From: Tetrahymena thermophila SB210 | Lineage: Eukaryota > Ciliophora > Oligohymenophorea > Hymenostomatida > Tetrahymenidae | Assembly (NCBI RefSeq): GCF_000189635.1 | Contig: NW_002476167.1 | Location: 1 to 64,000, forward strand | DNA: 64,000 nucleotides | Reading direction: 5' to 3' | Part shown: piece after piece, positions 29,403 to 63,104 of the stretch | Position numbering within the stretch: position 1 is the stretch's first letter | Layout of the letters: the number at the start of each line of letters is the position of its first letter | The notes under the pieces: generated by a model | What the model was told of the DNA's origin: nothing | What the model saw: only the letters and a program-made list of their open reading frames with translations | The model's database searches: none | Program-made: the position numbers and the translations under genes

Positions 29403-32400
29403 TCAAAAGTTATAAAGAATAGATAAAAATTCTTATCCTTCATTTAGATGATCTTCTTTCCTCAACTGTATTAATTTACTAACTATTTAATTCTCATTTT
29501 CCAAAGGCTCATATGAAATGAAAGGAGAGTTAAATTCTTTTTTATTATTTTAGCTTGTCGATTCCTTCAAGTGATAAACTATTGGTTTTTAATTATTTAT
29601 TATTTTTTAAAAGTTATTTAATCTCTAACTTAACTTAGCATGATCATTTTCTTAGTTATTAGATAAAAGTAAAATTACTTTTTTAATTTCATTTGTTAAA
29701 AATTTCTGGTTACTCCTTTCATTAATATTGTTTTAAATTACTTTTGAGTCAAAATATTATTATTTCAAAGATACTAAATGATCAAGTCGTCTGAAATCAT
29801 TTATAAATTATAATGATTAAAATAGGGCTTCTTACCAACTAAGCTAGGTCTTCATTTTATCATTAATGATTGTTCTTTCAATATCTTTTAAAGAGTCTAT
29901 AATGACATTCCAATCCTAGCTGCATTAGATCACCGTATATGATATAAAAATGTCAATTTCCGAATGATAAATTAGGATCTAAATCCTATCTTATTCTTCA
30001 AATAAGTTGGTTTTTTAAATATTTTAAAGAATGCTTTCAATTGTATAGTTCTCTTTGCAGTAATCCAATTAAGCAACAATAGTTAAATCTATTGGTGTTT
30101 TTTTGTTGTAAAAGAACTATTTTTGAGTTTCAAATACCAAACTTTTGAAAGGTATATCATTAATTGCTTATTTCATGTGAATTATGAGCTTTTTTCTTAA
30201 TTAAGGACTGTAATGACTACCTTCCTCTATGCTTTAAGTAAATAACTCAAATGCTTCAATATTATTATTTTTACTTTATTCAATTAGCCCTAACAAAAAT
30301 AGCTATCTACTTTTTTGGATTTCAAGAATTTATTTATAAGTATTTACAGAAGAAATATAGCTTGGTTCGCTCATTATATTATCTTAATATTTTTAATTAT
30401 TCATTATTTGATTTACTTTTTCAATTAACTTGTAAAAAATTTTATTATTATTTTATCTTAAAAATATGAATATCTCTATAATTTCTTAGTACAAATGTAT
30501 TTTGCAGATATCTGAAAAACTCAATTAATTGTTTTCAACAAATTTCAAGACAATTTTAAATGTGTTTAAAGATTAATTTAATAATTAAAGGGTTTCATTA
30601 GAGCTGCTTCTTTACTATATTCTTTATATGTCATGATTATGTTTAAAAAAATTTCTATTAAGCAAACTAGATGACTCATTAGTTTCATTTTAATCAAGGT
30701 AGTAAAATGATAAAGCTTACTATTTCAAACAATATGCTTTTGAAAATATTTTCTTTGTCAATATTTAAAGTTAATTTTCATAATTATTTTAAGATTTATT
30801 GAATATTTTATAGTTTTCAATACCTTGGTAATCGATCCCTATAGTCTCCAAGCTGAGCTCAATAGCAGATTCGAAATATTCTTATGCTAAATAGTAATTT
30901 TTGTTTAGAAGAGATGCAAGACCTAAATTATAATAACATCTCCATAATCCAATTTAGTTTTTTAATTGCTAAAATGTAGACTTTGCCTTACTAAAATGAA
31001 AAAGAGATTTTGTAAAATCCTCTGAATTATAGTTTTAAGCATCTATCGAATAGTTGATAAGATTTTCAAGGTCTTGAAAAGTTTATTTAATAATTTTCAT
31101 TTCCAAAAATAAAGGCTTTAGCCCTTTCAGAATTTGATTTTTATTATCTTGTTTTAATTTAATAAACTCATCACTTTGGAAAGAAGTAGTGCTTTCTTCT
31201 GTTGTTAATTTAGCTGTACTGGTAATAATTTGTAAATTTTCTTTATTGAGATGATTTTATCCAAAGGAAATAGACTAAACTTATTTTAATTACTTTTATT
31301 AAATATTGAGATATGTTATATCAAAACTTATAGGAATTTTTGGGGACTATGAATAATTTTTAGTGAATTGAATATCAGATTTCAAGGTATCATCACATTT
31401 ATCTAATTCTTTTAATTATTAAAATGAGAATTCTTTCGTTTGAAAATTAAAAGACTGTTAATTTTAAAGTAGCAAAGATGAATTATCCTACTTGTAAAAT
31501 TAGTTTTAAATCTAATTCTTATTTTTACTAGTTGATATTAAAATATTATTATTGTTCGATAAGAGCATTTAATTTGAAGTTTTTTTGTTATTATTTTTTT
31601 AAAATATGCTATTCTTTTTATTTTGATAGATTTTCTTTTATTTGTTTTATTCTTAATTTGGTTCAGTTATATTTATTTTACCAAAATTTTGATACGTTAA
31701 TTATTCTTAATAGCTTTTCTTTAAAAATAAAATTAGGAGCTTGATAGGCTTTTAAATTTAATAAACCAAAAAAACACCATAATTAATTAAAAATACAAGT
31801 ATGATTATACTCAGAATAACAAAACCTACTATTAAATAAAATCTAAAAAGTTGTATATCTAAAAGATTAAACAATTTCAATTAATCAGTCTGATCTGTTA
31901 TAACTTTAGCAATCAATAAAATTGCAAATGAGTATGGCTTTTAATTATTATATCCTTTAAGCTTGCTTTTTATCGGAAAAACGACACTTATTCTATTAAA
32001 AAAATAATTTAATATATAAAAAAATAATTTTAGTATGCTATTTTTAATTTAAAAATTTTAAAATAAATTAGAAAGGTAGGTTTTATTAAAAAATAATCTA
32101 TTAATAAAACTCATAATAGTGAGTTGCCTAGATATTAGAGTTAAATTAATTCAAATATATTTTATTTAAGGATTTTATCATATTTTACAATAATTTCAAA
32201 ATCCTAAAGCATATTTTTCTGAATTTTAAGAAGAAGATAAAATATTTTTTAAATTTAATCTTTGTAGTTTTTTTAGATTGAATTAACTACTAATTTATTT
32301 TTTTTGCAATAAAACTTTTTTCACATTAATTTTTGTAAAGACTAAGGCANNNNNNNNNNNNNNNNNNNNNNNNNNNNNNNNNNNNNNNNNNNNNNNNNNN

Positions 32401-35007: not shown

Positions 35008-38000
35008 TCAAAAATTATAAAGAATGGATATAAATTCTTATCCTTCATTTAGATGATCTTCTTTCCTCAACTGTATTAATTTACTAACTATTTAATTCTC
35101 ATTTTCCAAAGGCTCATATGAAATGAAAGGAGAGTTAAATTCTTTTTTATTATTTTAGCTTGTCGATTCCTTCAAGTGATAAACTATTGGTTTTTAATTA
35201 TTTATTATTTTTTAAAAGTTTTTTTAATCCTGACTTAGTTTAGCATGATCATTTTCTTATTTATTTGAAAAAAGTAAAATTACTTTTTTAATTTCATTTG
35301 TTAAAAAATTTTGGTGACTCCTTTCATTAATATTATTTTAAATTGCTCTTTGATTTTAGTCAAAATATTATTTCAAAGATACTAAATCATCTGGTCTTAA
35401 ATCATTTATAAATTATAATGATTAAAATAGGGCTTCTTACCAACTAAGCTAGGTCTTCATTTTATCATTAATGATTATTCTTTCAATATCTTTTAAAGAA
35501 TCTATAATGACATTCCAATCCTAGCTGCATTAGATCACTGTATATGATATAAAAATGTCAATTTCTGAATGATAAATTAGGATCTAAATCCTATCTTATT
35601 CTTCAAATAAGTTGGTTTTTTAAATATTTTAAAGAATGCTTTCAATTGTATAGTTCTCTTTGCAGTAATCCAATTAAGTAACAATAGTTAAATCTATTGG
35701 TGTTTTTTTATTTTAAAAAAACGATTTTTGTGCTTCAAATACCATATTTTTGAAAGGTATGTCATTTATATCATTAATAATTTATCTCAAGTGATATTTG
35801 AGCTTTTTTCTTAAATTAGGACTATAATGACTACCTTCCTCTATGCTTTAAGTAAATAACTCAAATGCTTCAATATTATTATTTTTACTTTATTCAATTA
35901 GCCCTAACAAAAATAGCTATCTACTTTTTTGGATTTCAATAATTTATTTATAAGTATTTACATATGAAATATAGCTTGGTTCGCTCATTATATTATCTTA
36001 ATATTTTTAATTATTCATTATTTGATTTACTTTTTCAATTAACTTGTAAAAAATTTTATTATTATTTTATCTTAAAAATATGTATATCTCAATCATTTCT
36101 TAGTACAAATGTATTTTGCAGATATCTGAAAAACTCGATTAATTATTTTCAACAAATCTCAAAACGATTCCAAATGTGTTTAAAGATTAATTTATTAATT
36201 AAACTATTACATTAGAGCTGTTTCTTTACTATATTCTTTATATGTCATGATTATGTTTAAAAAAATTTCTATTAAGCAAACTAAATGATACAAAATTTTC
36301 ATTTTAATCATTGTAGTAAAATGACAAAGCTTACTATTTCAGGCAGTATGCTTTTGAAAATATTTTCTTTGTTAATATTTAAAGTTGTTTTACATAATTA
36401 TTTTAAGATTTATTGAAAATTTTAAAGTTTGTAAGATCTTAATAATTGATCCCGATTGTCTCAAAGCTCAGCTAAATTGCAGATTCAAAATATTCTTATC
36501 CTAATTAGTAATTATTATTTAGAAGAGATGCAAGACCTAAGTTATAATAGCATCTACACAATCCAATTTAGTTTTTTAATTACTAAAATGTAGACTTTGC
36601 CTTACTAAAATGAAAAAGAGATTTTGTAAAATCCTCTGAATTATAGTTTTAAGCATCTATCGAATAGTTGATAAGACTTTCAAGATCTTGAAAAGTTTAT
36701 TTAATAATTTTCATTTCCAAAAACAAAGGCGTTAAACCTTACAGAATTTGATTTTTATTTTCTTCTTTTAATTTAATAAACTCATCATTTTGGATAGAAA
36801 AAGTGCTTTTTTCTGTTGTTATTTTAGGCGTGCTGATGACTTGTAAATTTTCTTTGTTAAGATGATTTTATCCAAAGGAAATAGATTAAACCTAATTTGA
36901 TTATTATTATTTAATATTGAGACATGTTATTTCAAAACTTGTGGGAATTTTTGGGGACTAAGAATTATTTTTAGTAAATTGAATATCAGATTTTTAGGTA
37001 TCATCACATTTATCAAATCCTTTAAATTATTGAAATGATAATTCTTTCGTTTAAAAATTAAAAGATGGTTAATTTTAAAGTAGCAAAGGTGGATTATCCT
37101 ACTTGTAAAATTAATCTTAAATATAATTTATATTTTTATAAGTAAATATTAAATTATTATTATTATTATTATTGTTTAATAAAGGCTTTTAATTTAAAGT
37201 TTTTTTGTTATTAATTTTTTAAAATATGCTACTCTTTTTATTTTATTAGATTTTCTTTTATTTATTCTATTCTATTTTTGATTCTGTTTTATTTATTTTA
37301 CTTAATTTCTGATGTGTTAATTATTCTTAATAGCTCTTCTTTAAAAATAAAATTAGGAGCTTGATAGGCTTTTAAATTTAATACACCAAAAAAACTCCAT
37401 AATTAATTATAAATAGTAGTATGATTATACTCAGAATAATAAAACCAACTATCAAATAAACTCTAAAAACTTTTGCATCTAAAAGGTTAAATAATTTCAA
37501 TTAATCAGTCTGATCTGTTATAACTTTTGCAATCAATAAAATTGCAAAAGAGTATGGCTTTTGGTTATTATATCCTTTAAGCTTGCTTTATATTGGAAAA
37601 ATCACACTTATTCTATTAATTTAATATGTTATTAAATAATTTTAGTTTAATTTTTTTTAATTTTCAAATTCTAAAATAAAATAAAAAGAAAGGAAGGAAA
37701 AACTAAAAATTAATTTAAAAAAAAATAATATTTTTTAATATTTAAGGAATAAATTTTCTATTTATTTTTACTCTTTTTATCCAAATCTCTCCCACCGTTA
37801 GAAAAGCTAATCCAAATTAACTTTATTTTCAATAGAGTATTCACCAGTTTTAATAAATGCAATAGTTTAATTAATTTAATTCAATAGTAACTGCTTTTAG
37901 GATAAGCAAAATGTCATAGTTTCTTAACTATCGTTGCAAAATTATTTTATGTTAAAAAATTCTACGTCTACCCAAGTCATAGGCACATTGAAAATATGTA

Positions 38001-39425
38001 AAGGATGATAAAAAACCTATTATTTAGTAAAGAGATTATTTATTTTAGAATGAAACTTAAAATAAAATAAAAATACTGAAATATCAAATTCATGAAATAG
38101 TACTGAATAGGAATTTCTACTAATTTATGCACCGTAAAGTTGCATTAAATTTTACATTATAAAAATTATACTTATAACTGAATAAAATTTTGAATCTTTA
38201 AGAATTTTTTGTGCTAGATTCATCTATAAAGTTCCTGATAGCGAGTCATTATATGGTTCATAAATAAATATACCTTATTTATATTAAAAATTAAAATGGC
38301 TTAATCTTTTAGTTTACTTATTGATAAATATAATATTGTTTTAATTAGCTTATTTTAATAATTTTTTCTACCTTCATTATTTTTTGCATATTAATACCAA
38401 AATCTACATCTTGGATCATATGGCTCTATAAATTATGTTCCTAGACAATCATAGTATTAAGAAAGCGTGTAATTATATAGGCTAACAGTAAGATTAAAAA
38501 TTATTTATTTATTTATTTTAAAAATATTTATTTAATTTTTACACTGAAGGAGATTCTGTCTTTATAGAAGTTTAATCTGAATTATGAAAATCAGTTATTT
38601 AGATTAAGCCATTAGTTTATGCTGCTAAATAAGCAGATCCACTGTAAAAAGATAAATCTGCAGTCTAATAATAATATAATATAATAAATAGTTTAAAAAT
38701 AAAATTATTTTTTTATAGTACCATTTTAATGAAAAATTGTTATTCAGGTGTAAGAAGATTATAATTAAACACTTCTCTCACAAAGTATAGTTATGCATAA
38801 AAAATACTTTAGTCAATCTAGTCATAAACATTATCTGGACATTAATCATGTAGAAACTCTCTAAAAGAGCAAAATGAATAGGTAGTATTATGATTATCTT
38901 TTTTAAAATGTTAAATAATGAAAAGGTAACTTGAAGAATACTTAAATATACATATAATTTAACCAGATAGATATTTATTTATTAATGCTTTCATGACTAC
39001 TGAATGTAATTCCAACTTTTATTCCAAAAAAATCATCAAAACTTATCATAATATATATTTTGTTCTACTTTAAATGAAATATAAAAAAATTACTTGATTG
39101 AAGCTATACTCTAATAAAACCTACTACGAATATACAGAATTAAAGAGAATTTGTTACTAATTTTTATTCATCCATGTAATGCTATCTGTCTCCCTTAAAA
39201 TTTGTATTTTATTAATGATTTACAAAAATGAAAAATCATTATAAATAAACTATTTTGATAGATGTATTTATAGCTAAAGCTTCGTTAATTTAAGTATTTG
39301 TGCTAACATTACCATTAATCAAGAGCTTGCCACATAAGTTTGTAAAAAATGATTGAAACAAATGCAACTCCTAGTATTATTGGTAACGATACTGTAACAA
39401 TTATTCTAAGAATTAACTATTTCAT
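35008..39425 (-). CDS. Receptor array gene 3: Cache / HAMP-like / TPR / vWA-like receptor
   Basis: ATG at 39425 (MKQLILRIIVTVSLPIILGV) gives an N-terminal membrane anchor. Sensor exons lie between about 37780 and 39425; the Cache signature block is near 38400. The long cytoplasmic exon, 37612-35008, was checked codon by codon and is open to TGA. It holds the final strand of the sensor, the second membrane helix, a HAMP-like segment (about 37350), a Q/N/S-rich linker, TPR-like helices near 36700-36480 and the vWA-like domain near 35580. Its cytoplasmic exon is almost identical to that of gene 2, but the sensor exons are clearly diverged from genes 1 and 2. That pattern suggests different ligand specificity with conserved downstream signalling. 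Confidence 0.76.
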
Positions 39426-40037: not shown

Positions 40038-43000
40038 TCAAGTATTATTAAGAATAGCTAAAAACTCTGATTCATCATTTAAATTTTCTTCATTTTTAAA
40101 TTTTATTAAATTAGATATCAGTTAGTTTTCATCATAAAATGATTCATAAATTATGTCTTAAGAATTGAAATTAGATATGTTACTTTGTATCAAAGGATAC
40201 TCTTTTAAATGGTATATAATAGGTTTGTTGTATTTGATTTACTTTTACTATAATTTTAATTAATAATTAAATTTATTTGATTAATCTGTTTGTTAATCTT
40301 TTGAGAAAAGTAAAATTACTTTATTCGAATTATTTATTAATATTCTTTTAAAAATATTTTGATTATTAAGAATAAATTTGGAGTTTTTAATATGATTTTT
40401 CTAATTTGTTTAATCTAATTAGAAATTTTATTTGAGAGAAATTAAATCAGATTGATTGATTTCATAAATAAGATTTATAGATTAAAAAAGAGCTTCTTAC
40501 CATGTCAATTGCTATTTTTATGATATTTCATCGTAAAGTGCTATTCTTTCTAAAGCTTTTAAAGAGCCAATTATTAAACTCCAGTGATTATTGTTTTTGA
40601 TGTGAGTAAATGGCATAAAAGTAGTTACATTCGAATCATAGATTAAAATTTAGATTCTATCATAGCCATTTAATAGATTAGATTCTTAAATTGTCTTTAG
40701 ACAAAATTCAACAGTTGAATGTTATTTATAATAATCAAGTTAAAGTAGAACTATTAAATCAAGAGAAGATTTTTATTATTTAAAAAGATAGGTTTAATCA
40801 TCATAATCTAAAATATCTTTAAAAGGAATCTCACTAACTACATTAAAAAGTTAGCTTAAATGAAAAGTAGCTTTTTTTCTTAAAATGGGATTGTAGTGAG
40901 TCCCTTCTTCTATACTTTAAGTAAATAACTAAATTGATTGAAGATAGTTATTATTAAATTACTCATTAAGACCAAATAAGAAAAGTTATCTGCTTTTTTA
41001 ATTTTAAATGATTTATTTATTTATATCTAAGTTAATTTCATTCATTATGCTTTATTTAAAGCATTTTTTTTGATCAATAGAAGCTTTTTACTATACTTCA
41101 CCAATGGTTTAATTTAATTATTTTGAGTTACTTAAAATCAAATGAACTGCTTTTATGTATTTATTAATTTTATAATTATTGTTATCGTTGAAATTTAAAA
41201 ATATTAATACTTCTATTATTTCTTAATATAAAAATATTTAAAATATCTCTGAATAACTATATTAATTATTTTCAACAAAATTTAAAACAATCTAAAATGT
41301 TTCTAAGGATTATCTTAATAACTAAATTTATTCACGAGAAAAGTTTTATTGCACTGCTTATAAAATATCTCTTCGTTTTTTTATGCAGAATTTATTATTA
41401 TTATTTTCAATATTTAAATTTTCATATTTATAATAATTTTATAAAGCTTACTATTTCAAACAATAAGCTTTTGAGAATATTCTTTTTGATATAATCAAAA
41501 TTGTATTTTCGGTATTCTCTTCGCTCTATTTAATGATTTTTTAATTAATTATATTTTAATAATCAGTTCCTAATGCCTCAAAGCTAAGCAAAATAGCAGA
41601 TTCAAAATATTCTTCAGCTAAATTGTAATCACAGTTTAAAAGAGATACAATACCTAAATTGTAGTAGCATCTACCTAATCCAGTTTAATTTTTAAGTTAC
41701 TAAAACGTAGATTTTGCCATACTAAAATGAATAAGACTTTTAGTATAATTTTAGGAGTTTTGGTTCTAAGCATCTATAGAATAGTTAATGAGACTTTCAA
41801 GATCTTTAAAAACATTTTTTATAATTTTCATTTCTAAAAATAGTGGCTTTAGCTCTTATAAAAAAATATTTTTGCGTTCTTATTTTTTTTTGTAATAAAG
41901 CTCATCTTCTAATTTAGAATTTTTTTTCCTTTAAATTTTTTGTTTGAAATAAATTGTGTTTAATGAACAATTGTTCTTATTAACTGAGTAGCTTTGCTCA
42001 AAAGATTCAGTGTTTTTTTAATTTAAATCTGATTGGTAACAACTATCATATATTTTTTCGCTGCTTTAAGGAATTTTTTTTATAGAATTATCTTTCTACA
42101 TTTAAAAGTCTTATTTTGAATTACTAGTTTATTTTAATTATAAAATAGTGTTCTAACTTTTGATTTGATTGATAGAATATTTAACTAATTTGTTTTGTTA
42201 ATTTGAAAAATTATAATTTTAAGAATATTCATGAGAATTCTCTTCTTTAAACCATTAAATATTACTTTATTCTATATATTTTTGGTTTTATGTTTGATTA
42301 CTGTATTCATTTTGAATAAATATTTAAAATAAATTTTATCTGCTGCTACTATTATTTTTTTTATTATTAGTGCTATTTTAGGATTTAAGATTTTTCTAAG
42401 ATTTTTTTTTTTTTAAATATTACCATGATTTCTTTTTATTTTTTTTCACTTTAGTTTAGCTTGTTTATTACTACTGATAGCTCTTTCTTAAAAATAAAGT
42501 TAACAATTCAATAGGATTAGAAATTTGATAAACCAAAAAATATCCATAATTAATAATAAAAAAAAGTATTAAAGAGCTTATAAGAGCAAATTCAATTATC
42601 AAATATATTCTTATTATGTTAGTGTTTAAAAGATTAAATAGCTTCAAATTATCACTTTCGTCAGTTATCACTCGAGCTATCATTATTATTGAATGTGAGT
42701 ATGGGTATTAGTTATTTAGCCCTTTAAACTTGCACTAAATAGGAAAAATAATGCTTATTCTTTATTAAAATAATAATGTATCAATTTCATTTATAATTAT
42801 TAATTTTTAAAAAATCCAATTTATTTTTCTTATACTAAAATTTTATAAGCAAATTTAAATATCAAATTTAATTTAAATTAAATTAATGCCTTTTTAAAGC
42901 AATTTAATTACTATACTAGGAGGGGAAAATAAAATATATTTCTTAATAAATGATAATAGATTTTTAATAATATTATATTTGGTATTTTGAAAAACCATTC

Positions 43001-45359: not shown

Positions 45360-48300
45360 TCAAGAATTATTAAGAATAGCTAAAAACTCTGATTCATCAT
45401 TTAAATTTTCTTCATTTTTAAATTTGATTAAATTAGATATCAATTAGTTTTCATCATAAAATTATTCGTAAATGATATTCTCAGAATTGAAATTTGATAT
45501 GTTACTTTGAATCAAAGGATATTCTTTTAAATGATATACAATAGGTTTATTGTATTTTAATTACTACAGTTATATCTTTAATTATTAATTGAATTTATTT
45601 GATTAATCAGTTTATTAATCTTTTGAAAAAAGTAAAATTACTTTATTTGGATTATTTAATAATATTTTTTAAAATAAATTTTCATTATCAAGTATAAATT
45701 TGGAATTTTTAAGATCTTTTTTCTAGTTTTTTTTACTCTGTTAATAATTTTATTTTAGAGAGATTAAATCAGAGTGATTGATTTCATAAATAAGATTTAT
45801 AGATTAAGAAAGAGCTTCTTACCATGATAATTGTTATTTTTATTTTGTTTATTCTTATAGTGACATTTTTTCTAAGTCTTTTAAAGAAGCAATTATTAAA
45901 TTCCAGTGATTAATGTTTTTGATGTTAGTAAATGGCATAAAAGTAGCTATATTTGAATCATAAATTAAAATTTAGATTCTATCTTAGCCATTTAGTAAAT
46001 TAGATTCTTATATCGCCTTTAGACAAAATTCAACAGTTGAATGCTATTTATAATAATCAAGTTAAAGTAGAACTATTAAATCTAGTGGAGATTTTTATTT
46101 TTTAAAAAGATAATTTTCATCATCTTAATCCAACATTCTCTTAAATGGGATATCACTAATAGCATTAATAATTTAGCTTAGATGATAAATAACTTTTTTT
46201 CTTTAAATGGGATTGTAGTGAGTCCCTTCTTCTATACTTTAAGTAAATAGCTAAATTGCCTGAAAATGGTTATTTTTAAATTATTCATTAAGAGCAAACA
46301 AGAAAAGTTATCTGCTTTTTTAAATTTAAATGATTTATTAATTTATATCAAAGTTACTTTCACTCATAAAACTTTGCTTGTAACATTTTTTTTGATCAAC
46401 AGATGCTTTTTACCATGCTTCGCCAATTAATGGGTTTTGATACTTTGAATTACTAATTATTTGACGAACTATTTCTATATATTTATTAATTTGATAGTTG
46501 TTATTATTATTAAAATTTAAAAATATTAATATTTCAATCATTTCTTAATATAAGAATATTTAAAATATTTCTGAATAGCTATATTAGTTATTTTAAGCAA
46601 AATTTAAAACAATCTAAAATGTTTCTAAGGATTATTTCAATAATTATATTTCTGCACAAGAAAAGTATTAATTTTTTGCTTTATAAGTATCTCTTTGTTT
46701 TTATATGCCGAATTTAGTATTATTATTTTCAAAATTTAAATCTTCATATTAATAATAATTTTATAAAGCTTACTATTTCAAACAGTAAGCCTTTGAAAAT
46801 ATTCTTTTTGATACTATCAAAATTAAATTTTCTGTATTTCTCTCACTTTATTAAATGATTTTTTAGTTGATTAAATTTTAATAATCAGTTCCGAATGCCT
46901 CAAAGCTAAGGAAAATAGCAGATTCAAAATATTCTTCAGCTAAATTATAATCACAATTTAAAAGAGATACAACACCTAAATTGTAATAGCATCTGCCCAA
47001 TCCTATTTAATTTTTAAGTTATTAAAATGTAGATTTTGCCATACTAAAATGAAAGAGAGTTTTAGTATAATTTTAGGAATTTTGATTCTAAGCATCTATA
47101 GAATAGTTAATAAGACTTTCAAGATCCCGAAAAACGTTTTTAATAATCTTCATTTCTAAAAATAGTGGTTTCAGCTCCTTTAAAAAAGTATTTTTATCTT
47201 CTTATTTTTTTTTATAAAGTTCATCTTCTTCAGAATTATTAGTCCTTAAACTTTTATCTTTAAAATTACTAGTGGTTATTGAGCAATTATTCTTATTAAT
47301 TGAGTAACTTTATTCAAAAGATTCATTATTTTTTTAATTTTAATCTGATTGTTAGCAACTATCATAAATTTTTTCACTGCTTTAAGGAATCTTTTTTGAT
47401 GAAATTTAAGATGAATCTTTTTAAATTTGAAAGTCTTATTTACTATTACTTTATTTTACTTATAAAATATTAGCTTAGCTTTTTGTTTGATCAATAGAAT
47501 TTTAAAATAATTTGCTCTATTGATTTTAAAAATTATAATTTTATGATTACTCAGGGGAATTCTCTTCTCTGACCAATTGAATATTGCTTTGGTCGATATA
47601 TTTTTGGTTTTATATATTATCATTGTATTCATTTTATATAAATAATTAAAATAGATTTTATTTGTTGTTATTTTTCTTAAATATGCTATTTATATTTTTA
47701 GATTTCAGAGTTTTTTTAAGCTTTTTTTTTTTTAATGACTACTATGATTTCTATTTATATTTTTTCACTTTTATTTTACACATTTGCTGCTATTAATAAC
47801 TCTTTCTTAAAAACAGAGTCAATAATTCAATTGGTTGAGAAATCTGATAAACCAAAAAAAATCCATAATTTGTAATAAAAATAATAATCAAAGAGCTAAT
47901 CAAAGCAAATTCTATTAACAAATATATTTTTATTATACTCGTGTTTAAAAGATTAAATAATTTCAATTAATCGCTATTATCAGTCATTACTCTAGCTATC
48001 ATTATGATTGCAAATGAGTATGGATATTAGTTATTAAGTCCTCTGAGCTTACTCTATATGGGAAAAATAATGCTTATTCTTTTAAAAATAATAAGATATA
48101 TATATTGTCATTTTATGAATTAAATTTTAATAATTAAATTCTAATTTAATTTTCTCATTCCATAATCAAATTAATACAATTTAATAAAAAAAATTAAATC
48201 AAATCTATATAGATAAAAGTCTTTATTTAGATCCTTAATTTTAAAGTTCATTTATGGAACCAAATATTATTTAAGGTGGGATAAACGAACCTTTTTTTAA

Positions 48301-50019: not shown

Positions 50020-50980
50020 ATATATTTGTTAATCAACTTTATTCCTACTTTTTAATTAATCTCCTTTCTGAATTATGAATAAAATAAGATCAGTAATTTA
50101 ATTTGCTATTTCTTTTGGTTAATTTTTTATTTAATTATGCTTGTTATACTACCTCAAAAAATAAATAAATAATAAACTAGATTTAATTAACAATAAATTA
50201 AAATTAGTGAATGAATTACATTTTTATTAATTTATATTTCTCATCAAAATATTTAAATAGATGTCATAATTTATGAAAAATCGTATAAAAAACAATTTTA
50301 TTGTTAGAGAGTTAATTAATAAATCTATTGTATTATTTAGCTATCAAGTCTCTAAAATTAGATTATTGTATGTATTGCTAATCAAGGTATTTAAATATGA
50401 TGAACTGGATAGCATTATATTTTAATACCTGGATTATGCTTAATTTAAAATTTAAAAAATAAATTAAAGTATTTATGAAAAAGAATGTAAAGGTACTATT
50501 CAATAAAATTCATAAATTAAATATAATATATAAATATATAGTATAAAAAGTGTTCAAATACAATATTCAATATTTTTTCAAATTTTTGGTGATTTTCGTT
50601 AAAAACAATAATAAAATCTATCTATCTATTTTTATTTTAGGTTAAAAAAAACTTTTTCAAAATATTATATAATAAAATATATAATATTATTCAAACATTT
50701 AATATTTATTCATCTTTTTTTCACCAGTTGTTTATCATTAGAATAAAATATCAAAGACAACTAATCTTTTTGATTTAAGACACTTGCTTATTACTTTGAA
50801 TTCTTATGATTCATACATTTATCTAAAAATTTTAAAATAAATTTGTGTAAATTTTAAATAAATATCAAATAGAATAAACTTTTAAATTAAAAATTATTTC
50901 TTAAGTTAATAAATAAAATAAAATAAGTAAAGATAAAAAAATAAATCAAATAAAAACTATCAAATTATATTCATTTTTAT
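50020..50980. other. Intergenic AT-rich DNA between receptor array and leucine-rich repeat array
   Basis: No gene was recognised. The 13-bp sequence AATACCTGGATTA at 50424-50436 recurs at 55814-55826, so it brackets the leucine-rich repeat array. If the repeat gene has a terminal exon it should lie here, but I could not identify one. Confidence 0.5.
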
Positions 50981-50984
50981 AGTT

Positions 50985-53900
50985 TAAAATATGAAAAAAT
51001 GAAGAAAAAATATGAAATAATAAGATTAATTAATAATAAAAGCAAAAGTTGAAAATAAAATGATGAGTTAAATTAAAAAAGAAAGAACAAAAAAAGCAAG
51101 CACAATAAAAAGAAAAAGAAAAATGAGCTTTATTATTGTATTAAATTAGTTTTTATAATTAAAAATATCAAAATCTAAAACAAATAAACTGTTTTTACGG
51201 AAGGCTAATTTTCAAATTTGATAGATTAATGCACTTTGCTAAAGCAGAACCTAAGCCTGATGCACCCATTGCACCAATTTTATTCAAACTTTTTAAATAT
51301 TGAAGAAATAATATATGATTAAATAGTTAATTAGAAGGAAAAAATGAAGAAAAAATATGAAATAATAAAATTAATTAGTTAATAATAAAAGCAAAAGTTG
51401 AAAATAAAATAACAAGTTAAATTAACAAAGAAAGAACAAAAATAAGCAAGCACAATAAACAGAAAAAGAAAAAAGAGCTTTATTGTTTTAAATTAGTTTT
51501 TATAATTAAAAATATCACAATCCAAAACAAATAAACTGTTTTACTTAAGATCAAGTGTCAAATTTTAGAGATTAATGCACTTTGCTAAAGAACAACATAA
51601 GCCTGATGCACCTTCGTCACCAATTTCATTGCGACTTTTTAAATATTGAATAAAAAATATATGATTAAATAGTTAATTAGAAGGAAAAAATGAAGAAAAA
51701 ATATGAAATAATAAGTTTAATTAATTAATAATAAAAGCATAAGTTGAAAATAAAATGGTGAGTTAAATTAACAAAGAAAGAACAAAAAAAAAGCAAGCAC
51801 AATAAAAAGAAAAAAGAGCTTTATTGTTTTAAATTAGTTTTTATAATTAAAAATATCACAATCCAAAACAAATAAACTGTTTTTACTAAAGATTAAGTGT
51901 CAAATTTTAGAGATTAATGCATTTTGCTAAACCAAAACCTAAGCCTGATGCACCTTCGTCACCAATTTAATTGCCACTTTTTAAATATTGAATAAAAAAT
52001 ATATATATTGATTAAATAGTTAATTAGAAGGAAAAAATGAAGAAAAAATATGAAATAATAAGTTTAATTAATAATAAAAGCAAAAGTTGAAAATAAAATG
52101 GTGAGTTAAATTAACAAAGAAAGAGCAATAAAAAGCAAGCACAATAAAAAGAAAAAAGAAAAAAGAGCTTTATTATTGTTTTAAATTAGTTTTTATAATT
52201 AAAAATATCACAATCCAAAACAAATAAACTGTTTTTACTAAAGATTAAGTGTCAAATTTGAGAGATTATTACAATTTGCTAAAGCAGAACCTAAGCCTGA
52301 TGCACCCATTGCACCAATTTTATTCAAACTTTTTAAATATTGAAGAAAAAATATATGATTAAATAGTTTATTAGAAGGAAAAAATGAAGAAAAAATATGA
52401 AGTAATAAGATTAATTAATTAATAATAAAAGCAAAAGTTGAAAATAAAATGATAAGTTAAATTAACAATGAAAGAACAAAAAAAAAGCAAGCACAATAAA
52501 AAGAAAAAAGAAAAAAGAGCTTTATTGTTTTAAATTGGTTTTTATAATTAAAAATATCACAATAAATCAACTGTTTTTACCCAAGCGAAAGTGACAAATT
52601 TTAGAGATTAATGCAATTTGCTAAAGAACAACCTAAGCCTGATGCACCCATTGCACTAATTTTATTGCCACTTTTTAAATATTGAATAAAAAATATATGA
52701 TTAAATAGTTAATTAGAAGGAAAAAATGAAGAAAAAATATGAAATAATAAGATTAATTAATAATAAAAGCAAAAGTTGAAAATTAAATGATCAGTTAAAT
52801 TAACAAAGAAGGAAAAGAAAAAAGCAAGCATAATAAAAAGAAAAATTAGCTTTATTGTATTAAATTAGTTTTTATAGTTAAAAATATCACAATCCAAAAC
52901 AAATAAACTGTTTTACTTAAGATCAAGTGTCAAATTTATGAGATTAATGCACTTTGCTAAAGAACAACCTAAGCCTGATGCACCCATTGCAAAAATTTAA
53001 TTATAACTTTTTAAAAATTGAAGAAAAAATATATGATTAAATAGTTTATTAGAAGGAAAAAATGAATAAAAAATATGAAATAATAAGATTAATTAATTAA
53101 TAATAAAAGAAAAAGTTGAAAATAAAATAATAAGTTAAATTAACAATGAAAGAACAAAAAAAAAGCAAGCACAATAAACAGAAAAAGAAAAAAGAGCTTT
53201 ATTGTTTTAAATTGGCTTTTATAATTAAAAATATCACAATCCAAAACAAATCAACTATTTTTACCCAAGCGAAAGTGTCAAATTTAAGAGATTAATGCAA
53301 TTTGATAAAGAACAACCTAAGACTGATGCACCTTTGTCACCAATTTAATTGCCACTTTTTAAATATTGAATAAAAAATATATGATTAAATAGTTAATTAG
53401 AAGGAAAAAATGAAGAAAAAATATGAAATAATAAGTTTAATTAATTAATAATAAAAGCAAAAGTTGAAAATAAAATGGTGAGTTAAATTAACAAAGAAAG
53501 AACAAATAAAAGCAAGCACAATAAACAGAAAAAGAAAAAAGAGCTTTATTGTTTTAAATTAGTTTTTATAATTAAAAATATCACAATTCAAAACAAATAA
53601 ACTGTTTTACTTAAGATCAATTGTCAAATTTGAGAGATTAATGCACTTTGCTAAACCAAAACCTAAGCCTGATGCACCTTCGTCACCAATTTAATTGCCA
53701 CTTTTTAAATATTGAATAAAAAATATATGATTCAATAGTTAATTAGAAAGAAAAAATGAAGAAAAAATATGAAATAATAAGTTTAATTAATTAATAATAA
53801 AAGCAAAAGTTGTAAATAAAATGGTGAGTTAAATTAACAAAGAAAGAACAAAAAAAAAGCAAGCACAATAAAAAGAAAAAAGAAAAAAGAGCTTTATTGT

Positions 53901-55500
53901 TTTAAATTGGTTTTTATAATTAAAAATATCACAATCCAAAACAAATCAACTATTTTACTTAAGATCAAGTGTCAAATTTTAGAGATTAATGCATTTTGCT
54001 AAAGCAGAACCTAAGCCTGATGCACCTTTGTCACCAATTTCATTGCGACTTTTTAAATATTGAATAAAAAATATATGATTAAATAGTTAATTTGAAGGAA
54101 AAAATGAAGAAAAAATATGAAATAATAAGATTAATTAATAATAAAAGCAAAAGTTGAAAATTAAATGATCAGTTAAATTAACAAAGAAGGAAAAGAAAAA
54201 AGCAAGCATAATAAAAAGAAAAATTAGCTTTATTGTATTAAATTAGTTTTTATAATTAAAAATATCACAATCCAAAACAAATAAACTGTTTTTACTAAAG
54301 ATTAAGTGTCAAATTTGAGAGATTATTACAATTTTCTAAACCAGAACCTAAGCCTGATGCACCCATTGCACCAATTTAATTGCCACTTTTTAAATATTGA
54401 ATAAAAAATATATGATTAAATAGTTAATTAGAAGGAAAAAATGAAGAAAAAATATGAGATAATAATTAATTAATTAATAATAAAAGCAAAAGTTGAAAAT
54501 AAAATGATCAGTTAAATTAAAAAAGAAAGAACAAAAAAAAAGCAAGCACAATAAAAAGTAAAAAGAAAAAAGAGCTTTATTGTTTTAAATTGGTTTTTAT
54601 AATTAAAAATATCACAATCCAAAACAAATCAACTATTTTTACCCAAGCGAAAGTGTCAAATTTGAGAGATTAATGCACTTTGCTAAAGAACAACCTAAGC
54701 CTGATGCACCCATTGCACCAATTTTATTCAAACTTTTTAAATATTGAATAAAAAATATATGATTAAATAGTTAATTAGAAGGAAAAAATGAAGAAAAAAT
54801 ATGAATAATAAGATTAATTAATAATAAAAGCAAAGGTTGAAAATAAAATGATGAGTAAAATTAAAAATGAAAGAACAAAAAAAAGCAAGCACAATAAAAA
54901 GAAAAAAGAAAAAAGAGCTTTATTGTTTTAAATTAGTTTTTATAGTTAAAAATATCACAATCCAAAACAAATAAACTGTTTTACTTAAGATCAAGTGTCA
55001 AATTTGAGAGATTAATGCACTTTGCTAAAGAACAACCTAAGCCTGATGCACCCATTGCAAAAATTTAATTATAACTTTTTAAAAATTGAAGAAAAAATAT
55101 ATGATTAAATAGTTAATTAGAAGGAAAAAATGAAGAAAAAATATGAAATAATAAGATTAATTAATTAATAATAAAAGCCAACGTTGAAAATAAAATGATG
55201 AGTTAAATTAAAAAAGAAAGAACAAAAAAAAAGCAAGCACAATAAAAAGAAAAAAGAAAAAATAGCTTTATTGTATTAAATTAGTTTTTATAATTAAAAA
55301 TATCACAATCCAAAACAAATAAACTATTTTTACGGAAGGATAAGTGTCAAATTTGAGAGATTAATGCACTTTGCTAAAGTACAACCTAAGCCTGATGCAC
55401 CTTCATCACCAATTTAATTGGAACTTTTTAAATATTGAAAAAAATATATATCATTAAATAGTTAATTAGAAGGAAAAAATGAAGAAAAAATTTTAAGTAT
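50985..55500. repeat. 13-unit tandem array, period about 345 bp
   Basis: Thirteen head-to-tail units measured from the core GCCTGATGCA (51255, 51603, 51943, 52295, 52637, 52973, 53321 with one change, 53667, 54015, 54352, 54699, 55041, 55390) have periods of 336-352 bp. Units stay alike over their full length, including AAGAAAAAATATGAAATAAT, AAGCAAGCACAATAAA and the AATTAGTTTTTATAATTAAA block. Each unit contains one 90-bp exon of the gene at 51199-55423, so this array is an exon-intron array rather than a plain satellite. Confidence 0.95.
51199..55423 (-). CDS. Leucine-rich repeat protein encoded by 13 tandem one-repeat exons (partial model)
   Basis: On the minus strand each unit has an exon of exactly 90 bp between an acceptor (...TTTAAAAAG) and a donor (GTAAAA). 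In transcript order: 55423-55334, 55074-54985, 54732-54643, 54385-54296, 54048-53959, 53700-53611, 53354-53265, 53006-52917, 52670-52581, 52328-52239, 51976-51887, 51636-51547, 51288-51199. All have the same phase, so they join into 390 codons of 30-residue repeats such as RNEIGDEGASGL and LAKCINLQNLTLDL. This is a ribonuclease-inhibitor-like leucine-rich repeat pattern known in large ciliate protein families. No exon contains TGA. Introns are about 246-262 bp and nearly as conserved as exons. First and last exons, start and stop are not identified, so whether the gene is functional is open. Confidence 0.7.
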
Positions 55501-55804
55501 TTTTAAAGAGGAAAATTTTGCCACTTAGAGCAGTTTCCGAAAGCCAAAAAAGACATATTCTTATATAGCTAATTTTGTTCTATAATAATATATAAATAAT
55601 ATCAAAAAAAAATTTAATCTGATTTTTTGCGAAACTCTTATATAAAGGATATTGGCAATGCGAACTCAATAATATTGTTAACCATTTTTCAATTTTACAC
55701 GTTTTATTAATTAAAAGGCCTTTCTTTTTAATAAAATCACAGGTAGATCTGTCAGATAAATTCTGACTAATTAAAATAAAAAAAGCAAGAAGGCTACTTA
55801 GCAT
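55451..55804 (-). CDS. Small open frame next to the repeat array, doubtful
   Basis: A 117-codon frame in the ciliate code starts MLSSLLAFFILISQNLSD, which could be a signal peptide, and contains a few cysteines. Its last 25 or so codons run into sequence shared with the repeat units' introns (AATTTTTTCTTCATTTTTTC), so the end is unlikely to be protein-coding as read. It sits where a 5' exon of the leucine-rich repeat gene would be expected, but I could not find a splice site that joins it convincingly. Confidence 0.25.
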
Positions 55805-55854
55805 TCAAATTTCAATACCTGGATTAGCAATAAATCAAATAAATTAAAAGAGTT

Positions 55855-55965
55855 TTAATGCTTTAAATTAATTTTTATAATTAAAAATATAACATTCCAA
55901 AACTAATAAACTGCTTTTATTAAGTGTAAGTCTGAATAGCAAAAAATGAAGAAAAAATATCAAAT
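55855..55965. repeat. Diverged partial unit of the 345-bp array
   Basis: This segment matches the intron-to-exon boundary part of the array units (TTTTTATAATTAAAAATAT, ATTCCAAAACTAATAAACTG, then AAAAAATGAAGAAAAAATAT). The exon itself is almost entirely missing and the donor GT is lost. It is an old, broken edge unit separated from the array by about 360 bp of unrelated sequence. Confidence 0.65.
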
Positions 55966-56724
55966 AATAAAAAATGAATAATAAATAATTTAAAATTGAA
56001 TTGAATTGAAAATTAAGTTAAAATAGCTAAAAAAATTTTGTTTTAATAAAAATCAATGGATAATGATGATAATTTCTAAAACAATAATTATTTATTTTAA
56101 TAAATAGAAAGTTAAATATATAAAAAATATTAATAATAATAAAAATATTTGTAAAAAGAATATACTTTAGACTAATATGGAGAGACTAATGAGATAAAAG
56201 TGATGAGCTTAAAAACTTTTTTTATTAATTTATATAAATTTAAAGGATATTAATAAAAAAATTAAAAATTACTTCTTCTAATTTTTTGTAATATTTAATC
56301 TATTATATCATTTATTTTTCTTTTCAAAAATATTGAATATCAAGCAAGCAATTTATGGAATTTAATTAATTATAAATGGATAAAAATAACAAATAAAATA
56401 TAATAATTAATTATCAAATATTAATTTATAAATTTGGTTTTATGAAGAGATATCACATAAAAATTAATTTAGCATTAATTATTTAATCTTAATATTTGTA
56501 TTTAAAACATATACTTAAAAATATAGTAGGAATTAAATATGACCAGTTAGTCATATTTGAAAAATTCTAGTAATTAATTAATTAATGTTCTTAAATTTTA
56601 TAAAAATAATATTAATAAGTAGATTTTTCTGTTTTTGCTCTGTAATTAATAAAATTAATATTTATAATATCTCTAATTATTCTCTAATCACATTAGTTTT
56701 TTTTTTGCAAGCATATTTTATTTA

Positions 56725-60625: not shown

Positions 60626-63104
60626 CACTTAGTACATTTGCTACTTAATTATTTTTGTTAATTTATTAATAATTTCTAAATTATTGTTAATACAAATTAA
60701 TCACTTGGTATCAATTATTAAAAGTAATATATCCTAACTATTTGATTGATTATTTTTATCAATTTAATCTGGTAAAGTATTTGAGCATTTTATAGTGAAC
60801 TAGTAAATAGTAATAAATACTCTTAATTAATTTTACATTAAAATTATGATGTAACTCTTTTTTATTAGATTCATAAATGTTAAATCTATATAAATTAAAT
60901 ATTCATACTAATAAAATCAAAAGACATAGAAAATAAAATACTCATATTCTTGATGGTTTCTTGAAGTATTTAAACATAAAGAAAAATTAAGAATTAAAAT
61001 TTAAAAGATTTTTCAAAGATTAATTAATTTTAGTTTTGACTGTAAGAATAAAAAAATTCAAAAAAAGTTTTACCTAAAATAAATTAAAATTTTTAGATTA
61101 TTTAGCTTGGATGATATAAAAAGAGTAATCTAATTTTTTATGGTCAAATGATAAATAGACCATCGATTTTATTACTTCTTTCTTTAAAAAACAAAACAAT
61201 TATTAAAAAAGATAAATTTTTGAAAAATGAACACCTTCAATTACTGATTATTTATTAATTTTATTCATAATTTTTTAATAAATTATAAACTAAGTTCTAA
61301 AGAAAAGATATTTTATACAAAAATTATTGTTATTATTATCATCATCATTTATAAAATTAAAAATTTCTAGTTTTCTGATTTTCAAAACCAAATTCTTATA
61401 TATTTTTTTAAAACATTTTAGTATTTGTGTAAAATATTAATGTAATTTTAAAAATAATTATACTCTATCTACTCTAATTATTATCCTCAAATACAAATAA
61501 TTATTTAAAGAAAATGTAAGAAAGTTTTAATTAAATCAAAAAAAAAAAATGATTCGAACATAATTAAGGATATAAATTATCTTAATTTAAAAGTCAAAAT
61601 AATTCATAAAAAACAGCGTTTATTTCTTCATGTTATTTTCTATTTAAATAAGTAATATTATTATATTATTTAAGAACAAAGTCACATTTTTACTAATTTT
61701 TTTGAATGGATGTTTAAATAAAAAAAATGTATTCAATTTAATTTAATATTAGTAAAATATGTATTGATTTTGAATTTTATTAAATTTTCTGATACTTTCA
61801 TGTTTATCATTTAATAAAAATATTTGATAGTAAAAGTAATATAAATATTTGATAAAATTATGCTATTAATATATAAATTGAACAAATAATTTTATATCTT
61901 TATTTGTTTTATAAAATTCACTTATTTTTTTAAAGAGGAAAAATTTAAATGATGTAAATAGCTTTTTTCAATTTATAGCTTGAATAATTTATTAATAGCT
62001 TAAAAATTTACTAAAACAAATTTAAAAAAAAAATATTTAAATTTTGAGCTATATTTGACGATGTTTTTTCAATCTAATTTAAATAGAAAACAATTATTGA
62101 AGATCATAATATTTTTTTTTAACTTTTAATAAAAAAACTAAGTTGTTAAAAAATCATTTCCATTTATTTTATATTACATTTCATAATAATATTTATCTAA
62201 TTCAAATAAAAAGCTACTTTATAGACATTTATTTTATCTTCAAGTTTCTTTTTTGAACAAATTTAAATTTAGTTGGTATGACTTGCTTAAAATAGAAAAT
62301 AAATATTATTTATAATTTTATGAAATAATAAACATTAAGGCAACTTTTTTAATACATATAATTTCGGTATAAATAATAAATCTATTCTAAAACAAATCTT
62401 AAATATTTTATATAATATTTCTTTCATTTTTACCTTAATTATTGAAACAAATTGTGAGTTTAATTTAATATATATGCCACTCATATTAATAAAATTATAA
62501 AAATTTTATTTTAATTTAGTTGTTTGGTGAATATATTTTTTTAATATTTTTAAAAATATTTTTGATTAAAAATAAGGATTTTGCATTTCATAAAAAGTTG
62601 TGAAAAATACATAAATCTTTTTAATATGCATTTCTGTTATTATCGCATAAAGTGTTCCTATTGTATTGATAACAAATCAGACTCAATGAAGAAAGTTTAA
62701 AGAAATCTCAAAAATACTTAAAAATTTCAAAAAGTTAATTCAACTTTATTAGCATTAATTAAGTATCATTATTAATGAATTCTTTTTTAGTTTAAATTAA
62801 AATTTAGCTTTTTATATATTTAAAATGTGCTAACATATTTTATTAATATTTTAGGAGAATTAATTACTGTCTTAAATATTTTTTTAATGAAAATTAAATT
62901 ATAAATTAAAAGATTAAAAAGTTTAATAGATATTAGAGATCTTACTGATGTAAAAATAAATATCTATTTTAAAAATCAATAAAGTATAATCGATTTAAAA
63001 TGGATATTATAAATAATTTAAAATAGATATTATAAATAATTTAAATTAGATATTATAAATAATTTAAAATTTTTTTTTGAAAATATTAAATTCAAAAAAT
63101 GGCT
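60626..63104. other. Intergenic AT-rich DNA between cysteine-rich gene copies 2 and 3
   Basis: About 2.5 kb without a gene. The end near 62830-63104 is similar to 59800-60028 and contains a small three-copy tandem repeat (ATTATAAATAATTTAAA type) at about 63003-63070. Confidence 0.6.

What the first reader, a model, noticed from the sequence alone, without database searches (positions are those of the whole stretch)
51199..55423. An apparent 345-bp satellite is a one-exon-per-leucine-rich-repeat gene
Each of 13 tandem units has a 90-bp exon with identical phase and plausible splice sites, and every exon is free of TGA and encodes a 30-residue leucine-rich repeat (IGDEGASGL and LAKCINL elements). 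Introns are homogenised with the exons, so whole exon-intron modules are being gained, lost or converted. This gives a direct way to vary repeat number by unequal crossing over without breaking the frame.
Basis: partly seen in the sequence, partly recalled or inferred. Interest (0 to 1): 0.8.

Follow-up and report, generated by a model that had tools for sequence, protein, structure and literature searches.

The report
Ciliate leucine-rich repeat exon array
The repeat is a gene of a kind already described in the ciliate Tetrahymena, built from near-identical exon-intron blocks that each encode one leucine-rich repeat, and the sequence suggests that the few codons expected to touch a binding partner vary far more than the rest of each block, as in a repertoire of recognition proteins.

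Summary
On the minus strand, 13 exons of exactly 90 bp (55423-51199) form a 347-bp tandem array with phase-2 introns of 246-262 bp. With TAA/TAG = Gln all 13 lack TGA and encode RI-type leucine-rich repeats. A family-conserved terminal exon follows; no first exon was found.

The architecture is known: Xiong et al. [quoted passage not shown] thermophila, a 257-bp intron peak, and propose unequal crossing over.

Exons are more divergent than introns (84.2% against 94.7% identity; pN/pS 1.63). In 25 of 25 arrays sampled from this genome, window included, codons 28, 30 and 1 (x5, x7, x8 of LxxLxLxxN) diverge more than introns: 0.51 on average, 12.8 times, while framework codons stay intron-like (0.03-0.04). 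I found no report of this in what I searched. Best reading: recombination copies modules while strong diversification acts on a binding surface. Selection and a codon-targeted process are not separated. There is no expression evidence.

The parts
55334..55423 (-). LRR exon 1 of 13 (90 bp, phase 2)
54985..55074 (-). LRR exon 2
54643..54732 (-). LRR exon 3
54296..54385 (-). LRR exon 4
53959..54048 (-). LRR exon 5
53611..53700 (-). LRR exon 6
53265..53354 (-). LRR exon 7
52917..53006 (-). LRR exon 8
52581..52670 (-). LRR exon 9
52239..52328 (-). LRR exon 10
51887..51976 (-). LRR exon 11
51545..51634 (-). LRR exon 12
51199..51288 (-). LRR exon 13
50735..50822 (-). terminal exon (QMYESQEFKVISKCLKSKRLVVFDILFQ, stop TGA), entered in phase 2 after a 376-bp intron
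   Evidence: similar C-terminus at 8 other places among the fetched loci; 24-aa query: own place plus 147 others at E <= 0.01, 150 of 252 candidates scored; exact exon ends read
55829..56400 (-). upstream segment shared with other places in the genome (85-89% identity), probably 5' flank or leader of the family
   Evidence: 39 other places match all or nearly all of query 1-572; only 40 of 1392 candidates scored, so a lower bound; 5 of them aligned
55709..55830 (-). dispersed repeat lying where other family members have their presumed first exon
   Evidence: (36 of 39 other listed matches start in this 122-nt part; all 39 are at 77-95% identity; 40 of 56 candidates scored)
50993..55491 (-). 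whole tandem array, period 347

Best explanation
This is a member of the young ('group III') 90-bp-exon LRR gene family of Tetrahymena, most likely T. thermophila. Each exon encodes one 30-residue RI-type repeat, shifted by the phase-2 introns, so any whole number of modules keeps the frame. Unequal crossing over or conversion copies and deletes whole modules, which keeps introns and framework codons nearly identical. Against that young background the codons for x5, x7 and x8 of LxxLxLxxN (28, 30 and 1, on the predicted concave face), and more weakly codons 6-7, 3, 15 and 18, are diversified. The protein would then be a solenoid whose binding surface differs from gene to gene, probably a recognition protein. 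Shown: array, frame, terminal exon by similarity, the codon-restricted excess over introns. Inferred: splicing, expression, concave location (from LRR homology), recognition role, species, and selection as the cause.
For: 13 of 13 exons exactly 90 bp, phase 2, TGA-free. LRR_6, 55.8 bits, on 7 joined repeats, though no single stretch passes alone; 11 PDB sequences match, 5 of them named as leucine-rich-repeat proteins. Unit of 347 bp and introns near 255 bp match the 347/257 bp given for T. thermophila group III. Within arrays: framework pS 0.030, framework pN 0.036, introns 0.039, codons 28/30/1 0.506, above introns in 25 of 25 arrays, window included. Per-base diversity is 0.60-0.71 at seven of the eight core bases, while codon 29, between 28 and 30, is CTT in 143 of 152 exons and codon 2 is AAT in 147 of 152. 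Hold-out: the 8 most variable columns of the other loci have diversity 0.601 in the window against 0.101 for the other 82. 103 distinct junction triplets (28, 30, intron, 1) among 114. Codons 30 and 1 are adjacent in the protein but lie on either side of a nearly constant intron, so variability follows the protein and not the DNA neighbourhood. D, N, Y, S, G, R, E and Q make up 83% of core residues; I, L, K and F are scarce compared with seven long ORFs of the window, assumed coding. Brown-algal ROCO LRR exons (72 bp, phase 2) show positive selection at concave-face sites (PMC11378527 passages); that these are the same motif positions is my mapping.
Against: No RNA evidence. No first exon was identified, and a dispersed repeat lies where paralogues have their presumed one. 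Xiong et al. report Ka/Ks below 1 (median about 0.4 for the youngest LRR genes) between paralogues. In the seven variable codons taken together (1, 3, 6, 7, 15, 18, 28) pS and pN are both 0.29, and NNC exceeds NNT at codons 28 and 1 (68:47 and 68:20 against 681:2696 in the long ORFs); selection on amino acids alone predicts neither. pN exceeds pS in 22 of 25 arrays, so not in 3. In the window itself framework pN (0.073) exceeds framework pS (0.026), so the excess is not wholly confined to the core. Loci were chosen by similarity, are partial arrays, and some may belong to one gene (L010 and L012 share identical exons; L013 and L040 overlap in range). Concave position was not modelled.
Confidence: 0.68

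Rival explanations
1. Codon-targeted change: the core codons are rewritten as blocks, by short-tract exchange from a genome-wide pool or by a mutational process, not by point mutation plus selection.
For: Among 46 of 436 within-array exon pairs with no framework difference (74 nt), codon 1 differs at 0/1/2/3 nt in 19/10/4/13 pairs and codon 28 in 13/12/18/3. A stepwise model needs a rate 68-98 times the framework; block replacement fits better on raw counts (logL -63.1 against -67.0 for codon 1; -58.0 against -59.8 for codon 28). Synonymous change in the variable codons is as high as non-synonymous, and third positions of codons 28 and 1 are biased to C.
Against: When pairs are weighted by array the models are nearly equal, block against stepwise -22.8 to -22.1 for codon 1 and -20.2 to -20.9 for codon 28. 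Pairs are not independent. Short-tract exchange needs a pool that is already diverse, which moves the question back. The nearly frozen codons 2 and 29 touch the core codons. I know of no such mutator (recall, not searched).
Confidence: 0.17
2. Old binding-site alleles on a young background: gene conversion homogenised introns and framework while selection kept old alleles at the core, so the intron is too young a clock.
For: Introns differ less within arrays than between (0.040 against 0.067), so there is homogenisation. Recombination between codon 1 and codons 28-30 is visible in the window.
Against: Codon 29 lies between both core codons and its synonymous positions are nearly frozen; conversion tracts would carry the neighbours along. 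Different leucine codons predominate at different framework positions, so codon preference does not explain it.
Confidence: 0.08
3. This copy is a pseudogene, broken at its 5' end by the dispersed repeat.
For: Family similarity of the 5' flank stops at about 55829 and a repeat found at many other places begins there; no first exon was recognised.
Against: 13 of 13 exons with their splice sites, and the terminal exon, look intact. First exons of the five paralogues examined could not be fixed either, so absence is weak evidence.
Confidence: 0.25
4. A non-coding satellite whose open frames are chance.
For: Low G+C, and the code leaves only TGA as stop, so long open frames are common here: 271 of at least 120 aa.
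Against: Fixed exon length and phase, no exon length change against many intron indels, LRR_6 match, conserved terminal exon; expressed relatives reported in print (PMC6564038).
Confidence: 0.02

Closest known systems
Tetrahymena group III 90-bp-exon LRR genes (Xiong et al. 2019, PMC6564038)
   Same: Exactly 90-bp exons, phase-2 introns, about 257-bp introns and 347-bp units in T. thermophila, variable unit number, unequal crossing over proposed, recognition role suggested.
   Different: The paper reports purifying or relaxed selection (Ka/Ks below 1). Its main text has no 'hypervariable' or 'positive selection', and I saw no intron-clock comparison in the sections read; figures and supplements were not seen.
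Brown-algal ROCO genes (PMC11378527; passages seen)
   Same: One LRR per exon, phase 2, exon shuffling, positive selection at concave-side sites 14, 16, 18, 19.
   Different: 72-bp exons and a 23-residue LRR, fused to a ROC-COR GTPase, alternatively spliced. Here the predicted terminal exon ends the protein soon after the repeats.
Lamprey variable lymphocyte receptors (PMC3900441; passages seen)
   Same: LRR solenoid with variable residues predominantly on the concave surface.
   Different: Diversified by a deaminase-mediated gene-conversion-like process (start of its abstract); that this is somatic is recalled. Nothing here shows somatic change.
TAL effector repeats (recalled, no call)
   Same: Near-identical repeats that differ mainly in a few specificity residues.
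   Different: DNA-binding helical repeats without introns; unrelated.

Membership tests
Tetrahymena group III LRR genes | tandem array of at least 3 exactly 90-bp exons | tested here: met
   13 of 13
Tetrahymena group III LRR genes | phase-2 introns on both sides | tested here: met
   13 of 13 by predicted splice sites
Tetrahymena group III LRR genes | intron length near 257 bp (T. thermophila) | tested here: met
   246-262 bp, 12 introns
Tetrahymena group III LRR genes | repeats detectable at the nucleotide level, many related copies in the genome | tested here: met
   TRF score 6890; 233 DNA matches with 40 of 1488 candidates scored, a lower bound that includes the window's own units. The paper's CRS library itself was not used.
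Tetrahymena group III LRR genes | intact, expressed gene | tested here: inconclusive
   array and terminal exon look intact; first exon not found; no RNA data
Tetrahymena group III LRR genes | species is Tetrahymena | tested here: inconclusive
RI-type leucine-rich repeat | LxxLxLxxNxL-like consensus and profile match | tested here: met
   PF13516 LRR_6, E 2.2e-15; PDB matches. The repeat is 30 residues with LxxLxLxLxxNxI; 'RI-type' is recalled.
Somatically diversified receptors (VLR-like) | variability on the binding face | tested here: inconclusive
   variability at x5, x7, x8 is shown; that these form the binding face is by homology only
Somatically diversified receptors (VLR-like) | somatic generation of diversity | not testable with these tools
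   one assembly only, no germline or clonal comparison

The most novel reading that the evidence does not exclude
Tetrahymena carries a germline repertoire of modular binding proteins in which an active process rewrites, codon by codon, the concave-face positions (28, 30, 1) of otherwise copied modules, as a natural analogue of a designed repeat-protein library. The high synonymous as well as non-synonymous change in the variable codons, the C-rich third positions and the nearly frozen neighbouring codons would be its trace.
Probability: 0.15. Interest if true: 0.88.

Novelty: new member of a known kind. Interest (0 to 1): 0.55.

Why it matters
The gene type is known but its purpose is not. 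Xiong et al. suggested recognition of bacteria or environmental cues as a hypothesis and reported Ka/Ks below 1. Each module carries its own clock beside the exon, an intron of about 250 bp. Measured against it, the codons expected to contact a ligand differ 12.8 times as much on average, and more than the introns in each of the 25 arrays sampled. That points to a recognition repertoire, names the residues to test, and makes 'selection or targeted change?' a question that parent-progeny sequencing can answer.

Tried and rejected
Satellite without coding function: rejected (frame, phase, constant exon length, LRR profile, terminal exon). Relaxed constraint on surface residues: rejected, because the core diverges far above introns and not merely up to them. 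Higher-order repeat from block duplication: lag analysis gave a weak maximum at lag 6 in exons (0.895) and hardly any in introns (0.954 at lag 6, others 0.940-0.952), so not claimed. Linkage between core codons: mutual information against within-array shuffles was modest in 10 pairs tested, highest z 4.7 for 1-3, 3.5 for 1-6/7, 2.2 for 1-28, and 0.6 for 30-1 across the intron. A first exon from paralogues: frames were not consistent across 5 loci, so none is proposed. A second copy of the dispersed repeat near 50436: score 43, below the maximum of 46 in 50 shuffles; on the other strand a match at about 50375 scored 52, above that maximum, and was not followed. Broken units in other arrays: gaps above 420 bp between accepted exons occurred in 7 places; 4 hold an LRR-like unit without a clear acceptor and 3 hold none; these were not counted as exons. 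The exon filter for the other loci (at least 8 of 11 framework residues, no TGA, AG and GT at 90 bp) can depress their framework non-synonymous change but hardly synonymous change; in the window the 13 exons were found by splice context alone. The set of codons 28, 30 and 1 was fixed after looking at pooled data that include the window, so the permutation test is not blind; the hold-out columns in that call were chosen without the window. Double counting: L013 and L040 overlap in range but share no identical exon; without L040, core exceeds intron in 24 of 24 arrays and pN exceeds pS in 21 of 24. Of L001-L042, 26 loci were used with the window; 2 (L001, L002) had fewer than two accepted exons and 14 overlap those used or the window. 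25 arrays, window included, had at least three exons and two introns. Loci hold the match and at most 1500 bp on each side, so arrays are partial.

Papers: PMC6564038 abstract, sections 9, 10, 11, 15, 23, 27 and passages; PMC11378527 and PMC3900441 passages; others only as search listings. No supplements or figures were seen.
Full report
What is there. Tandem Repeats Finder reports one dominant array, 50993-55491, period 347, 13.1 copies. On the minus strand, 13 acceptors in the context TTTAAAAAG are each followed by a GTA donor exactly 90 nt later (13 of 13). The 12 introns between them are 246-262 bp. Each exon is 1 nt + 29 codons + 2 nt, so the introns are phase 2. With TAA and TAG as glutamine the frame is free of TGA in 13 of 13 exons and reads, for example, GNQIGDEGASGLGFGLAKCINLSNLTIDL-N; 10 of 13 exons use an in-frame TAA. 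Seven joined repeats match Pfam LRR_6 (E 2.2e-15, no single stretch passing alone) and 11 PDB sequences (best E 2e-13, 'Leucine-rich repeat protein'; 5irm, listed as uncharacterized and recalled as NOD2, at 6.9e-09). Intron pairs of this array show gap events at a rate that would give 1.2 per 90 bp, yet all 13 exons have one length.

Ends of the gene. Downstream, an AG acceptor leads in phase 2 into a short last exon (50822-50735) ending ...SKCLKSKRLVVFDILFQ-TGA. A similar C-terminus occurs at 8 other places among the fetched loci, and a 24-residue query finds 148 places including its own at E <= 0.01 (150 of 252 candidates scored). Upstream, 56400-55829 is shared with at least 39 other places at 85-89% identity (40 of 1392 candidates scored), but 55828-55499 is not part of those matches. 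The stretch 55830-55709 is a dispersed repeat: 36 of 39 other listed matches start in it, at 77-95% identity. Five paralogues have a different sequence there that may hold their first exon, but their frames did not agree. So the 5' end is unresolved and this copy may be damaged.

Known kind. Xiong et al. 2019 (PMC6564038; [quoted passage not shown] thermophila introns peaking near 257 bp (units of 347 bp), and unequal crossing over, possibly with REP retrotransposition, as the mechanism. This array meets the structural marks that I could test. The genome (101 Mb, 445 contigs, no name) fits T. thermophila, but that is inference.

Pairwise, introns of this array are 94.7% identical and exons 84.2%. 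Codon position 3 varies least; pN/pS is 1.63. I extended this to 26 further loci of the same genome, giving 152 exons and 114 introns with the window. These come from the 30 best DNA matches (of 233) and 10 best protein matches (of 150), overlapping ones dropped. Exons exceed introns in divergence in 25 of 25 arrays with enough units, and pN exceeds pS in 22 of 25.

Where the change is. Per-base diversity is nearly two-valued. Codons 1, 28 and the split codon 30 have 0.60-0.71 at seven of eight bases; the middle base of codon 28 has 0.25 and is A in 131 of 152. Codon 7, the last two bases of codon 6 and single bases of codons 3, 15 and 18 reach 0.37-0.62. The third positions of the remaining codons average 0.036, and 253 intron columns 0.064. 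Within arrays: framework pS 0.030 (95% bootstrap over arrays 0.017-0.046), framework pN 0.036 (0.026-0.046), introns 0.039 (0.030-0.049), core codons 0.506 (0.470-0.540), 12.8 times the introns, core above intron in 25 of 25. Without one locus whose range overlaps another the result stands, 24 of 24. As a hold-out, the eight most variable columns of the other loci have diversity 0.601 in the window and the other 82 have 0.101; and none of 100,000 random sets of eight columns reached the window's value for codons 28, 30 and 1, a set fixed after seeing pooled data. In terms of the motif LxxLxLxxN, these are x5, x7 and x8. In brown-algal ROCO genes, also one LRR per phase-2 exon, positively selected sites lie on the concave side of the LRR (passages), and lamprey VLRC varies mainly there too (passages). 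The concave assignment here is by homology, not by a model.

What it means. Codons 30 and 1 meet in the protein but are separated in the DNA by a nearly constant intron, which argues that protein function sets the pattern. Codon 29, wedged between 28 and 30, is CTT in 143 of 152 exons, so the framework is young or copied while its neighbours have changed greatly. Core residues are mostly D, N, Y, S, G, R, E and Q (83%), and there are 103 distinct neighbouring triplets among 114. This looks like a binding surface under strong diversification.

What does not fit a simple selection story. In the seven variable codons synonymous change (0.29) equals non-synonymous change (0.29). Third positions favour C over T (68:47 at codon 28, 68:20 at codon 1; 43:27 and 40:14 when counted once per array) although NNC and NNT are synonymous, and seven long ORFs of the window, assumed coding, show 681:2696 and framework codons 449:1673. 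Among 46 of 436 within-array exon pairs with no framework difference, whole-codon differences are common (codon 1: 13 of 46 differ at all three bases). A stepwise model would need 68-98 times the framework rate. But weighted by array, stepwise and block-replacement models cannot be told apart. A targeted or block-exchange process is therefore possible but unproven.

Limits. One assembly, no RNA, no relatives' genomes, pairs not independent, partial arrays chosen by similarity to the window, and some loci may belong to one gene (L010 and L012 share identical exons). Four protein-found arrays alone give intron 0.063 and core 0.517, so the contrast is not due to choosing by DNA match, though it is smaller. 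In the window itself framework pN is 0.073 against pS 0.026, so some framework residues change too. The four-gamete sign of exchange appears in 2 of 21 arrays, the window being one. Literature searches for a prior report: in an open-access library; none of their listings showed one, but figures and supplements of PMC6564038 were not seen.

Noticed in passing
55709-55830 (-): Dispersed repeat: 36 of 39 other listed genome matches start in it, at 77-95% identity. It lies where family members have their presumed first exon; perhaps a remnant of a mobile element.
   Followed up: partly
exon codons 1 and 28 in window and 26 loci: Third positions favour C over T in these hypervariable codons, unlike the framework and seven long ORFs; unexplained.
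   Followed up: partly
29403-32150, 35008-38373, 40038-42998, 45360-48107 (all -): Four long minus-strand ORFs (915-1121 aa, table 6), each with weak TPR matches below the Pfam cut-off; whether they are related to one another was not tested.
   Followed up: no
16805-19051 (+): ORF matching Pfam PF25228 (Lips protein), E 2.8e-32.
   Followed up: no
62993-63070: 23-bp minisatellite, 3.4 copies, 94% matches.
   Followed up: no
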